64,000 nt of DNA from Acidobacteriota bacterium. GTDB taxonomy: Bacteria; Acidobacteriota; Vicinamibacteria; Vicinamibacterales; UBA823. The translations under genes were made by a program, and so were the position numbers. Under the pieces are notes generated by a model, which worked only from the letters and a program-made list of their open reading frames with translations, did not search any database and was not told the origin of the DNA. Every line of letters begins with the position of its first letter. Positions within the stretch are counted from its first letter, which is position 1. The DNA lies in NCBI GenBank assembly GCA_002730525.1, contig PCAK01000005.1:65280-129279 (forward strand). Direction: 5' to 3'. Of the stretch, positions 1,759 to 5,831 are shown piece after piece.

Positions 1759-4200
1759 TCACCGGCTCCCGGCGGGAAAGAATTCCTCGGTCCGCTCGGC
1801 CACGGACTCGATCTTCGCTCGCGAATAGAATACTGGAAAATACTTCCCGTCCGCCCACAGCGTGAACAGATCGCTGTAGTGCGAACTGTCGGGGTTCCCG
1901 GACTGCCCCGGTGCGTTCGTCCCGACCGAGTGGTCCCAATTCTCCGTGTCGGCGATGATCCGAAACGAGGCGCCGGAAGTCTGGTTGTCACCGTTGCCGG
2001 TGTTGTTCAGGGTCCGGCCGTATCCGCCGCGCGGGACGGGCCCCACGTCGAGGCGAAGGCGCGTCGCCTCGTCCACGGCCGGGCTCAGCGGATGCCGGAT
2101 GAGCGCATGCTTGAAGTTGGTTTGGCCGTACCGCCAATCGGCCTGATCGGGCCCCAGCTGCGCTTCCAGGTCCGAGAGCGCCTGCTCCAGGCTATCCGCG
2201 ACGAGCCGGTCCCGCCCGGCGATCGGGTCGGCGCCGAACCGGCCATCTGGCGCCGCCAGCCCGTTGATCGCCTTCTTCATGTTCACGCCGCCAACCAACG
2301 TCCGGATCGACGCTGGCACGAATATCTCGCGGAGGTTGCGCACCAGGCGGCGCTCCCAGGCGACGTAGAGCGCCGCCTCGACCGAGTCTCGGCCGAGCAC
2401 CGCATCCCATGCCAGAAGTCGGCGCCGCGCATCTTCCGCCGCCGGGCTGGCGATCGCCACACCGTCGAGAAAGGCCACCAGATTCCGGGCGGGCACCGAG
2501 AGCTCGTCGTGCTGCAGCCGCATCATGTCCACGATCGTGTGGCGGCGGCCTGATCTGAGCACCTCGTTCAGGCGCACCGCGCGCATCTCGTCTCCCCAGG
2601 TGTAGTGCAGCGCGTTAACGTAGGGATACCCGTCGGGAACCATGTAGTTGTTGGCGCTGCCGAAGTAGTCTTCGGGCGGATTGACGACGTGCGGCAGCGC
2701 CTCGATCGGCAAGTAGCCGTCCCATTCGTATCGGCCGTCGCCCGGCACCGGCACGAGGCCGCTCCACCCAGGACGAATCGGTGAGACGCCGACGGCCTGG
2801 TAGCCGATGGTCTTGCCGCGATCGGCCCAGATCATGTTCTCTGCCGGGATCCGGCTGTAACTGCACGCCTCACGAAACTCTTCCCACGTGCGCGCCTGGT
2901 CCATGCGCAGGCTCGCCAAGTACGGTGCCGCCCCGACGTCGAGCCACGCCGCGCGCAGGGCGTAAGCCTTGTCGTGCTCGAGGTCTTCGAACTGCACCGG
3001 GCCATGGCGTGTGTACTTCAGCTGGACCCTGACGGGCGGCTCGCCCTTCACCGAGATCTGCTCCTCGACCACTCGCATCCGCTCCCACTGGTCGAGATAG
3101 CGGTACTCGAGCGGGTCGTCCGGATTGGTGTCGTAGACGTAGAGATCCTCGCTGTCCTGACCGAAGACCGTCAGGCCCCACGCGCCGTGCTCGTTGTGTC
3201 CAATGGAGATGCCCGGCAGGACCGGCTCACCGCCGCCGATGACGTTCCAGCCGGGACCGACCAGATGGACCCAGTAGCGGAGCGACGGCGCCTGCTGCAC
3301 CCGGTGCGGATCGTTCGCCATGAAGGGAAAGCCACTCAAGGTACGGCCGCCGCCGATGACCCAGTTGTTGCTGCCGATGGCTTCCTGTGCCTCGGCGAGG
3401 TCGGCCTCGATCGGCATCGCCGCGCTCAACCGCTTGAACGTCGCGCGGTCCGCCCGAAGCGCCAGCACGATGTCGTCCGGTTCGAACCGCATCGGCCGCT
3501 TGAACGCCCGGTAGATGTCGAGGATCTCGTCGGTCAGTAGTGCCCCGTCGATAGCGGGATCAAGCACGAGATCGGGTTCGCCCGGCCGGAACCAGGACAG
3601 CTCCCGGATCGGCCCAGGGCCGACGCGCGCCACCGCGCGCCCGTAGGCCAGCTCGCTCGTCACGTTGGCCAGGAGGCCCTGGTGACGCGAAATCACGACC
3701 TCGGGCGTCCACCGGCCAGGGGCAATGCCCAGCAGGCGGAACTCGACCGGCAGCAACTCCGGGTTCTGGTCGGTCATCTCGATGTAAGCGTTGATGCCTC
3801 TCACGAAGGCATTGATGATCGCCGCGCCGCGCGGATGGTAGTGATTCAGTTCCTGCGTGAGATCGCCGCGGAACCGGTGCAACCGCGAACCGATGTCGTC
3901 CTCGAGCGCCCGGCGGCCAAGGATCTCCGCCGACGTACCGGTCGCCTTCCGCCGCCACATCTCGAACTGGAACAGCCGATCGCGGGCCGCATTGAAGCCT
4001 TGCGCGAAGAACAGGTCGGCCTCGGTCTCGGCGTAGATGTGCGCAATGCCCCACCGATCCGTGATGATCTCCACGGGCGCGTCGAGGCCGGCCAGCTGCA
4101 GCCTCTCCGGCTGGTCTTGCGCTCTTGCTTCGGACGGTAGCCCGAACTGCGTCGCGGATCCGAGGATCAGGCTGAGGGATAGAACGCGGAGAGTTCTCAT
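1759..4200 (-). CDS. Penicillin acylase family hydrolase
   Basis: Ntn-hydrolase of the penicillin/acyl-homoserine-lactone acylase family, cleaving amide bonds of acylated substrates in the periplasm. Residues 1-28 form a signal peptide ending SEARA. The precursor (813 aa) carries the autocatalytic junction GSNNW with the nucleophile Ser at about 277, which becomes the first residue of the beta subunit. The ANDPH motif that follows is typical. Start ATG 4200 has GGAG upstream and a TATAAT 27 nt before the expected transcript start region. The true substrate (beta-lactam, AHL or another N-acyl amide) cannot be read from sequence. Pairing with ggt suggests scavenging or quorum-signal turnover. 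Confidence 0.92.
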   Translation of the reverse strand: MRTLRVLSLSLILGSATQFGLPSEARAQDQPERLQLAGLDAPVEIITDRWGIAHIYAETEADLFFAQGFNAARDRLFQFEMWRRKATGTSAEILGRRALEDDIGSRLHRFRGDLTQELNHYHPRGAAIINAFVRGINAYIEMTDQNPELLPVEFRLLGIAPGRWTPEVVISRHQGLLANVTSELAYGRAVARVGPGPIRELSWFRPGEPDLVLDPAIDGALLTDEILDIYRAFKRPMRFEPDDIVLALRADRATFKRLSAAMPIEADLAEAQEAIGSNNWVIGGGRTLSGFPFMANDPHRVQQAPSLRYWVHLVGPGWNVIGGGEPVLPGISIGHNEHGAWGLTVFGQDSEDLYVYDTNPDDPLEYRYLDQWERMRVVEEQISVKGEPPVRVQLKYTRHGPVQFEDLEHDKAYALRAAWLDVGAAPYLASLRMDQARTWEEFREACSYSRIPAENMIWADRGKTIGYQAVGVSPIRPGWSGLVPVPGDGRYEWDGYLPIEALPHVVNPPEDYFGSANNYMVPDGYPYVNALHYTWGDEMRAVRLNEVLRSGRRHTIVDMMRLQHDELSVPARNLVAFLDGVAIASPAAEDARRRLLAWDAVLGRDSVEAALYVAWERRLVRNLREIFVPASIRTLVGGVNMKKAINGLAAPDGRFGADPIAGRDRLVADSLEQALSDLEAQLGPDQADWRYGQTNFKHALIRHPLSPAVDEATRLRLDVGPVPRGGYGRTLNNTGNGDNQTSGASFRIIADTENWDHSVGTNAPGQSGNPDSSHYSDLFTLWADGKYFPVFYSRAKIESVAERTEEFFPAGSR

Positions 4201-4233
4201 GCATTACTCCAGGACATAGAAGACCGGCACCGC

Positions 4234-4239
4234 ATTATA
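4234..4239 (-). promoter_or_regulatory. -10 element for the acylase-ggt operon
   Basis: Minus-strand TATAAT puts transcription start near 4227. This gives a leader of about 26 nt that includes the GGAG ribosome site before ATG 4200. No clear -35 is visible. Confidence 0.55.
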
Positions 4240-4290
4240 CGAGTCTCGCGTGGGGGTCGGCGAGGAGTTCTGGCGAGGCTTCCGTTTCGA

Positions 4291-4296
4291 TATAAT
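4291..4296 (+). promoter_or_regulatory. -10 element, nearly leaderless, for the AhpD-like selenoprotein
   Basis: Perfect TATAAT ends 8 nt before ATG 4304, so the predicted start of transcription (about 4303) nearly coincides with the start codon. There is no Shine-Dalgarno sequence in front of this ATG. Confidence 0.6.
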
Positions 4297-4303
4297 CCCC
4301 GGC

Positions 4304-4867
4304 ATGGCATGGATCAAGACGATCGATTACGAGCAATCTGACGGCGCGCTGCGCGCGGAATACGACAAGGCGACCAGGCGTGCCGGCAAGGTCTACAACA
4401 TCGTTGGCATCATGGGCCTTCGCCCGTTGCAGATGAAGGCGAGCATAGATTTCTACGGCGCGGTCATGCACGGCCGGGCCGCACTCAGCCGTGCGCAGCG
4501 CGAAATGCTGGCCGTGGTCGTCTCACAGGTCAACCACTGCCACTATTGAATCGAGGCCCACGTGAACGACCTCCGGGCCGAGGTCGACGACGACGGATGG
4601 GTGGACCGGTTCAAGGCGGACTGGCGAACGGCCGGGCTGTCAGCGACGGACACGGCGCTCATGACCTACGCCGAGCGCCTGACGCGGGCGCCGTGGGAGA
4701 TCCGGCGCGGCGACCTGGACGACCTCCGCGCGGCGGGTCTCGCGGATGAGCAGATGAGCGACGCCGCGCAGGTGATCGCCTACTTCAACTACATCAATCG
4801 GATCGCCGACGGGCTCGGCGTCGACCTCGAAGACTCGATGCCGCCTGACCCCCGCGACGCCGGCTGA
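4304..4867 (+). CDS. AhpD-like peroxidase-related selenoprotein with in-frame TGA (Sec)
   Basis: One frame runs from ATG 4304 to 4867, interrupted only by TGA at 4547-4549. Upstream it encodes an AhpD/carboxymuconolactone-decarboxylase-type domain ending NHCHY. Downstream the same frame continues IEAHVNDL and completes a normal-sized domain. Related proteins carry a redox CxxC at this spot, so the TGA replaces the second Cys: C79-H-Y-Sec82. A hairpin fitting a bacterial SECIS follows (4567-4586). Translated with Sec, the product is 187 aa. The likely role is a cytosolic thiol/selenol peroxidase. The start is supported by the TATAAT just upstream and by MAWIKTIDY, the usual family N-terminus. 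A nonsense-mutated pseudogene is the alternative, but an intact frame on both sides and the SECIS fit argue against it. Annotation as two ORFs (up to 4549 and from 4562) would be an artefact. Confidence 0.85.
4567..4586 (+). promoter_or_regulatory. Candidate bacterial SECIS hairpin
   Basis: CGACCTC (4567-4573) and GAGGTCG (4580-4586) form a perfect 7-bp stem around the loop CGGGCC. The loop begins 25 nt after the TGA and has G at its second position. Both features fit known bSECIS rules (a short apical loop roughly 16-37 nt from UGA, with a G among its first two bases). An alternative stem GGCCC/GGGCC (4555-4559 with 4575-4579) could compete. Confidence 0.7.
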
Positions 4868-4868
4868 C

Positions 4869-5831
4869 TCAATCGGCGGGATCGTCCGGCGGGTCGCCGG
4901 CCGGCGGCACTCCGCTGGTCACGACCACCGGCGTCGCGCGCTCGTTGACCTCGAGCCGGAAGACGTCCGGACGGGCGTAGTGCCCCACGACGTCGAAATC
5001 GTACTTCCCGCGCGCCAGGTCACCCAGGTCCAGGTCGGCCGTGAGCAAGCACGACCCCTCGTACTGCGGACCGGCCAGCAGCCGACCGAAGGGATCGATG
5101 ATGCAACTGCCTCCCCGCGAGACCACCGTCTCCGGGTCATCACCCTGCACGGTGTCGTAGTCGTCCGGAAAGTCCTTTCGCTTCGCGTACTGATTGGCGG
5201 ACAGCACGAAGCAGCGGCCCTCCATCGCAATGTGGCGCATCGACGCGACCCAGGTGTCGCGCTCGTCGGCGGTCGGCGCGCAGTAGATCTGAATCCCCTT
5301 CGAGTACATGTGCAGCCGCATCGCCGGCATGTAGTTCTCCCAGCAGATGACGGCGCCCAGACGGCCCAGCGGCGTGTCGAACACCGGCATCGTCGAACCG
5401 TCGCCGAATCCCCACACCAGCCGCTCGGCCGCCGTGGGCATCAGCTTCCGATGCTTCCCCATAAGCGCACCGTCCGGTGCCAGAAAAAGGACGGTGCAGT
5501 ACAGCGTCCCGACACCACGCTCGATGACGCCGATCACCAGGTGGATCCGGTGGCGCTTGGCGATCGCGCTGAGTCGGTCGACCGCGGGTCCAGGGACGTC
5601 GACGGCGCTGTTCCAGTAGCGCAGGTAGTCGTCACGACCGGCGGGTGTCCGCATGCCGAACCGGGCGCCGAAATCGAGGCCCTTTGGATAGCCGGACACG
5701 AAGGCCTCCGGGAACAGCACGAGGTCGGCACCCTCGTCAGCGGCCCGCACCGTCCAGTCGGCCACGAGCTCGAGGGTGCGATCGCGGTCGAAGACGATCG
5801 GGGCGGTCTGGGCGATGGCGACACGGGACAT
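4869..5831 (-). CDS. Nitrilase-family carbon-nitrogen hydrolase
   Basis: Cytosolic C-N hydrolase of 320 aa, no signal peptide. The catalytic triad is visible: Glu42 in LFPEAF, Lys129 in GKHRKLMP and Cys163 in ICWENYMP. The CWENYMP form and length match true nitrilases (nitrile to acid plus ammonia) and their close relatives rather than the amidases or NAD synthetase domains. The start ATG 5831 has GAGGTG upstream, and a TACAAT at 5876-5881 suggests a 38-nt leader. It converges with the selenoprotein gene; the two stop codons are one base apart. Substrate is not predictable from sequence. Confidence 0.9.
   Translation of the reverse strand: MSRVAIAQTAPIVFDRDRTLELVADWTVRAADEGADLVLFPEAFVSGYPKGLDFGARFGMRTPAGRDDYLRYWNSAVDVPGPAVDRLSAIAKRHRIHLVIGVIERGVGTLYCTVLFLAPDGALMGKHRKLMPTAAERLVWGFGDGSTMPVFDTPLGRLGAVICWENYMPAMRLHMYSKGIQIYCAPTADERDTWVASMRHIAMEGRCFVLSANQYAKRKDFPDDYDTVQGDDPETVVSRGGSCIIDPFGRLLAGPQYEGSCLLTADLDLGDLARGKYDFDVVGHYARPDVFRLEVNERATPVVVTSGVPPAGDPPDDPAD

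What the first reader, a model, noticed from the sequence alone, without database searches (positions are those of the whole stretch)
4304..4867. AhpD-like selenoprotein with a CxxU site
Seen: one frame interrupted only by TGA at 4547-4549, placed exactly where the redox CxxC needs its second Cys (CHY-TGA), and a perfect 7-bp hairpin with loop CGGGCC 25 nt downstream. Known: AhpD/CMD-domain selenoproteins have been reported from metagenomic surveys, and bacterial SECIS hairpins sit in this range with G early in the loop. Inferred: the host decodes UGA as Sec, and standard pipelines would split or truncate this gene.
Basis: partly seen in the sequence, partly recalled or inferred. Interest (0 to 1): 0.9.

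Follow-up and report, generated by a model that had tools for sequence, protein, structure and literature searches.

The report
Selenoprotein of the AhpD-like peroxidase-related family
This gene really does appear to encode a selenium-containing AhpD-like redox protein whose in-frame UGA is read as selenocysteine, but the family has been described since 2005, so it is a well-supported, ordinary new member rather than a discovery.

Summary
Window 4304-4867 (+) is one gene interrupted only by TGA 4547-4549, exactly at the second Cys of the AhpD redox motif (CHYU, C79/U82). The read-through protein is a strong TIGR01926 (peroxidase-related, AhpD-like) match. The host genome (99.2% complete) encodes all the machinery: tRNA-Sec(UCA), SelA, SelB, and a SelD with an in-frame TGA of its own. 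In 101 distinct downstream sequences from relatives in several phyla the TGA sits at the same codon and the Glu/Cys/His catalytic residues are kept. A hairpin at 4567-4586 (7 bp, loop CGGGCC, 24 nt between TGA and loop) fits the published bacterial SECIS model. Alone it is weak evidence: synonymous shuffles fold about as well. Across relatives it is supported by a compensatory C-G to U-A exchange. Synteny is kept in two same-family genomes. Sec forms of TIGR01926 with CxxU are already in the literature (2005 survey, 2026 review), so this is a new member of a known kind. One small extra: the hairpin occupies two alternative registers, loop about +16/17 or +24/25, in different branches of the family. 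I found no description of this in the few papers I checked.

The parts
4304..4867 (+). Sec-type ahpD-like gene (TIGR01926 peroxidase-related), 187 residues with U82; stop TGA 4865-4867
   Evidence: TIGR01926 138.7 bits against a cut-off of 81.8; Pfam CMD PF02627; homologous to solved structures 6k40, 2oyo, 3c1l
4547..4549 (+). in-frame TGA read as selenocysteine (U82)
   Evidence: same codon is TGA in 101 distinct relatives' downstream sequences; TGC in Cys homologues
4538..4540 (+). TGC, Cys79: first residue of the CxxU motif
   Evidence: Cys in 106 of 107 aligned relatives
4567..4586 (+). bacterial SECIS hairpin, 7-bp stem, loop CGGGCC 4574-4579
   Evidence: fits the published bSECIS model; compensatory change at the pair +21/+34 across relatives
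1759..4200 (-). divergent neighbour, probably penicillin acylase-like; conserved flank
   Evidence: tblastn 91% in L054, 75% in L055; name is my reading of the translation
4869..5831 (-). convergent neighbour, probably nitrilase / carbon-nitrogen hydrolase-like; conserved flank
   Evidence: tblastn 97% in L054, 85% in L055; name is my reading of the translation

Best explanation
The gene encodes a selenocysteine-containing member of the AhpD-like, peroxidase-related family (TIGR01926). The ribosome reads UGA 4547-4549 as Sec, using SelB with Sec-tRNA(Sec) and the hairpin just downstream. The protein should be an all-helical AhpD-fold thiol/selenol oxidoreductase. Sec82 would be the attacking residue, forming a selenenylsulfide with Cys79, with Glu67, Tyr81 and His86 serving as the proton relay. 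Shown here: family, TGA position, Sec machinery, conserved hairpin with covariation, conserved relay residues. Inferred: actual Sec insertion, that Sec is the attacking residue, peroxide or disulfide reduction, physiological substrate.
For: TIGR01926 E 1.7e-40 across both sides of the TGA. Solved AhpD-like structures match residues 16-173 with CxxC at CxxU. tRNA-Sec with anticodon TCA, SelB 331.7 bits, SelA 552 bits, SelD 351.5 bits with an internal TGA. Relatives in Acidobacteriota, Planctomycetota, Chloroflexota, Actinomycetota and Gemmatimonadota have TGA at the same codon. SECIS pair +21/+34 is C-G in 46 and U-A in 15 of 67 sequences; C/A never occurs and T/G once. Glu67, His86 and codon 82 (Sec/Cys) invariant in 107 rows, Cys79 in 106. 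Genomes with a TGA-type homologue have selA in 43 of 45 cases, against 17 of 30 for the others. Synteny conserved.
Against: No experiment. The hairpin of this single sequence is no stronger than synonymous shuffles, and no Rfam family matched here. The covariation counts and the selA association are not corrected for phylogeny. In the selA table, TGA was counted anywhere in the matched stretch. One TGA-type genome (G104, 85% complete) lacks a selA match and one (G145) has only a fragment.
Confidence: 0.96

Rival explanations
1. Pseudogene or sequencing error: the TGA is a nonsense mutation or base-call error in a Cys-type gene.
For: TGA differs from TGC by one base; the hairpin alone is not significant.
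Against: Same codon is TGA in two same-family assemblies and across phyla; the protein is 79-89% identical over its whole length, 3' half included; Sec machinery is complete.
Confidence: 0.01
2. Two separate genes: a 99-aa ORF ending at TGA 4549 and a second one starting at GTG 4562, as a standard ORF caller lists them.
For: the ORF listing under table 11 gives exactly these two ORFs.
Against: The AhpD fold and the TIGR01926 model span both halves, the split lies inside the catalytic motif between C79 and H86, and Cys homologues are single ORFs.
Confidence: 0.01
3. UGA is read as another residue (Cys or Trp, by reassignment or a suppressor) rather than Sec.
For: Any read-through of UGA would also open the frame.
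Against: The gene's own stop is TGA, and so is that of the window ORF ending at 1759, so UGA does not look reassigned. tRNA-Sec(UCA) and SelB are present, and the hairpin covaries.
Confidence: 0.02

Closest known systems
AhpD-like protein selenoprotein family (TIGR01926 / COG2128, CxxU; Sargasso Sea 2005, GOS 'AhpD-like 1', 2026 review PMC13188914)
   Same: Same family model as in the 2026 review, same CxxU motif with Sec at the second Cys position, hairpin SECIS directly downstream
   Different: Only the host: a Sec-decoding bacterium close to Acidobacteria MAGs UBA2161 and UBA823. No functional difference seen
AhpD-related protein NF041238 (AhpD_rel_CFYUT, Sargasso 'hypothetical protein 1')
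   Same: AhpD-like domain with CxxU
   Different: 75.3 bits against a cut-off of 175, and the match covers only the second half of a 357-position model: not a member
M. tuberculosis AhpD and P. aeruginosa PA0269 (Cys-type)
   Same: Glu-x11-Cys-x2-Cys/Sec-x3-His spacing of the proton relay (E67, C79, U82, H86); PA0269 also has Tyr before the second Cys (PMC3141380)
   Different: Cys in place of Sec; TIGR00777 AhpD score 20 against a cut-off of 192
Cys-type relatives of solved structure: 6k40 AhpD, D. geothermalis 2oyo, Mlr4105 3c1l
   Same: Homologous over most of the length (E 4e-28 to 1e-25)
   Different: CxxC in the two aligned (6k40, 2oyo), no Sec

Membership tests
TIGR01926 peroxidase-related enzyme | score above the curated cut-off | tested here: met
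   138.7 vs 81.8 bits
TIGR01926 peroxidase-related enzyme | E-x11-CxxC/U-x3-H relay motif | tested here: met
   E67, C79, U82, H86, conserved in 106-107 of 107 rows
Bacterial selenoprotein | in-frame TGA aligned with a Cys of homologues, conserved beyond it | tested here: met
Bacterial selenoprotein | host encodes selA, selB, selC, selD | tested here: met
Bacterial SECIS (published model) | 3-9 nt loop, 4-16 bp stem, G in the first two loop positions, 16-37 nt from UGA to loop, MFE <= -7.5 kcal/mol | tested here: met
   loop 6 nt, stem 7 bp, G second, 24 nt, -14.5 kcal/mol for a 45-nt stretch holding the hairpin (model)
Bacterial SECIS (published model) | binds SelB and drives Sec insertion | not testable with these tools
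   needs a reporter or binding assay
Canonical AhpD (TIGR00777) | score above cut-off | tested here: not met
   20 vs 191.95 bits
NF041238 AhpD_rel_CFYUT | score above cut-off | tested here: not met
   75.3 vs 175 bits
AhpD-like peroxidase activity | reduces peroxides or accepts electrons from an AhpC-type partner | not testable with these tools
   biochemical assay needed

The most novel reading that the evidence does not exclude
Within this one selenoprotein family the SECIS hairpin has moved about 8 nt along the coding sequence more than once. The conserved CTCC(G) segment, in the D-L-R codons, serves as the 3' arm in the near register (loop about +16/17) and as the 5' arm in the far register (loop about +24/25). 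This would give a natural series for studying how SECIS elements shift while the coding sequence is kept.
Probability: 0.6. Interest if true: 0.35.

Novelty: new member of a known kind. Interest (0 to 1): 0.2.

Why it matters
It corrects an annotation: standard callers would split this gene inside its active site. It adds an acidobacterial-type host with the full Sec pathway. The family alignment shows clear SECIS covariation and a register shift that could be tested with reporters, but no new biology is needed to explain the gene.

Tried and rejected
Rfam scan of 4000-5200: no match. Hairpin significance from the single sequence, by synonymous shuffles and by TGA background: not significant, so not used as evidence. 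Phage relatives by tblastn: none. RNase P class B family search of the genome: no hit and irrelevant, run only to see whether the genome was held. Scan of the window for another in-frame Sec TGA by GC3 and open flanks: the only other candidate is the stop of the ORF ending at 1759 (-), followed by another ORF, and no hairpin of at least 6 bp with a loop of 4-8 nt was found after it; rejected. Pseudogene, split-gene and code-reassignment readings considered and rejected. Structure prediction not run, because solved homologues already settle the fold.

Full report
Observation. The frame 4304-4867 (+) is open except for TGA at 4547-4549 (and its own TGA stop at 4865-4867), giving a 187-residue protein with the motif NHCHYUIEAH. 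Under table 11 it falls apart into two ORFs. A 7-bp hairpin CGACCTC-CGGGCC-GAGGTCG sits at 4567-4586, with 17 nt between TGA and stem and 24 nt between TGA and loop.

Family. The read-through protein matches TIGR01926 (138.7 bits, cut-off 81.8) over residues 3-174, across the TGA, and Pfam CMD. Solved AhpD-like structures 6k40 and 2oyo align over most of the protein with Cys at the TGA position, and 3c1l matches residues 16-173. It is not canonical AhpD (TIGR00777) nor NF041238: both scored below cut-off. The relay residues known from M. tuberculosis AhpD (Glu118, Cys130, His132, Cys133, His137) and PA0269 (Tyr in place of His132) (PMC3141380) correspond to Glu67, Cys79, Tyr81, Sec82 and His86. 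Across 107 aligned relatives E67, codon 82 (Sec or Cys) and H86 are invariant and C79 and Y81 are kept in 106.

Sec machinery. The window's genome (3.31 Mb, 99.2% complete) holds tRNA-Sec (61.6 bits, anticodon TCA), SelB (331.7 bits), SelA (552 bits) and SelD (351.5 bits, itself with an internal TGA; read as ...YSACAGU...). It also holds a second TGA-containing relative of this gene at G000:C43:45045-45593 (42% identical) with the motif NQCHYUIRHH.

Relatives. Searches gave relatives in the same genus (89%), same family (79%), same order, and in named MAGs of Acidobacteriota, Planctomycetota, Chloroflexota, Actinomycetota and Gemmatimonadota. All Sec-type relatives have TGA at the codon aligned to 4547-4549, 101 distinct downstream sequences in all. 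Cys-type relatives have TGC there. Of 75 genomes with a homologue, those with a TGA-containing match have selA over cut-off in 43 of 45 cases and those without in 17 of 30 (Fisher p 5.5e-5). This is not corrected for phylogeny, and TGA was counted anywhere in the match. The flanking genes are the same in the two same-family MAGs UBA2161 and UBA823.

SECIS. Taken alone, the hairpin proves little: 782 of 2000 synonymous shuffles fold at least as well, and 30 of 1458 TGAs in the window have a similar hairpin. Across relatives it is informative. Sliding the partner by 1-4 columns drops the paired fraction from 0.78 to between 0.28 and 0.55. The pair +21/+34 is C-G in 46 and U-A in 15 of 67 sequences, with no C/A and one T/G cell. 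In 11 sequences the change couples a silent GAC to GAT in the Asp codon with GTC (Val) to ATC (Ile). The U-A state is seen in same-order relatives and in Planctomycetota, Chloroflexota and Actinomycetota sequences. The hairpin meets every numeric constraint of the published bSECIS model (PMC13188914).

Mechanism. By analogy with AhpD (PMC3141380) the CxxU pair would be a selenenylsulfide/selenolthiol centre, with Sec82 as the attacking residue and Cys79 resolving it. That assignment and the substrate (peroxide or a protein disulfide) are inferred, not shown.

Novelty. AhpD-like CxxU selenoproteins were reported from the Sargasso Sea in 2005 (27 sequences, PMC1088965) and from GOS in 2008 (299 'AhpD-like 1', PMC2398784). 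The 2026 review lists 'AhpD-like protein, TIGR01926, CxxU' (PMC13188914). Sec-containing Acidobacteria were known by 2006 (PMC1794560). Hence: a new member of a known kind.

Extra observation. The hairpin occurs in two registers, loop at about +24/25 (most sequences, this gene included) or about +16/17 (27 of 107 tree rows). The shared CTCC(G) segment is the 5' arm in one and the 3' arm in the other. A quick tree needs at least 4 changes between registers. Some sequences can form both (7 of 101). Caveats: a quick tree with many weak forks, registers called from the sequence itself, and the SECIS columns not removed before tree building.

Noticed in passing
L024-L133, 10-40 nt downstream of the Sec TGA: SECIS hairpin in two alternative registers (loop +16/17 or +24/25) sharing the CTCCG segment as opposite arms; at least 4 switches on a quick tree.
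   Followed up: partly
L134 (G000:C43:45045-45593, minus strand): Second Sec-type AhpD-like paralogue in the same genome, motif NQCHYUIRHH; the ORF reading upstream of it looks rhodanese/sulfurtransferase-like.
   Followed up: partly
L138 (G000:C10:38726-39655): SelD of the host is itself a predicted selenoprotein (internal TGA, CAGU motif).
   Followed up: partly
window 4304-4867: Subthreshold Pfam match to sestrin (PA26, 27.1 vs 29.4 bits), consistent with the AhpD-like half of sestrins (the last point is from my own knowledge).
   Followed up: no
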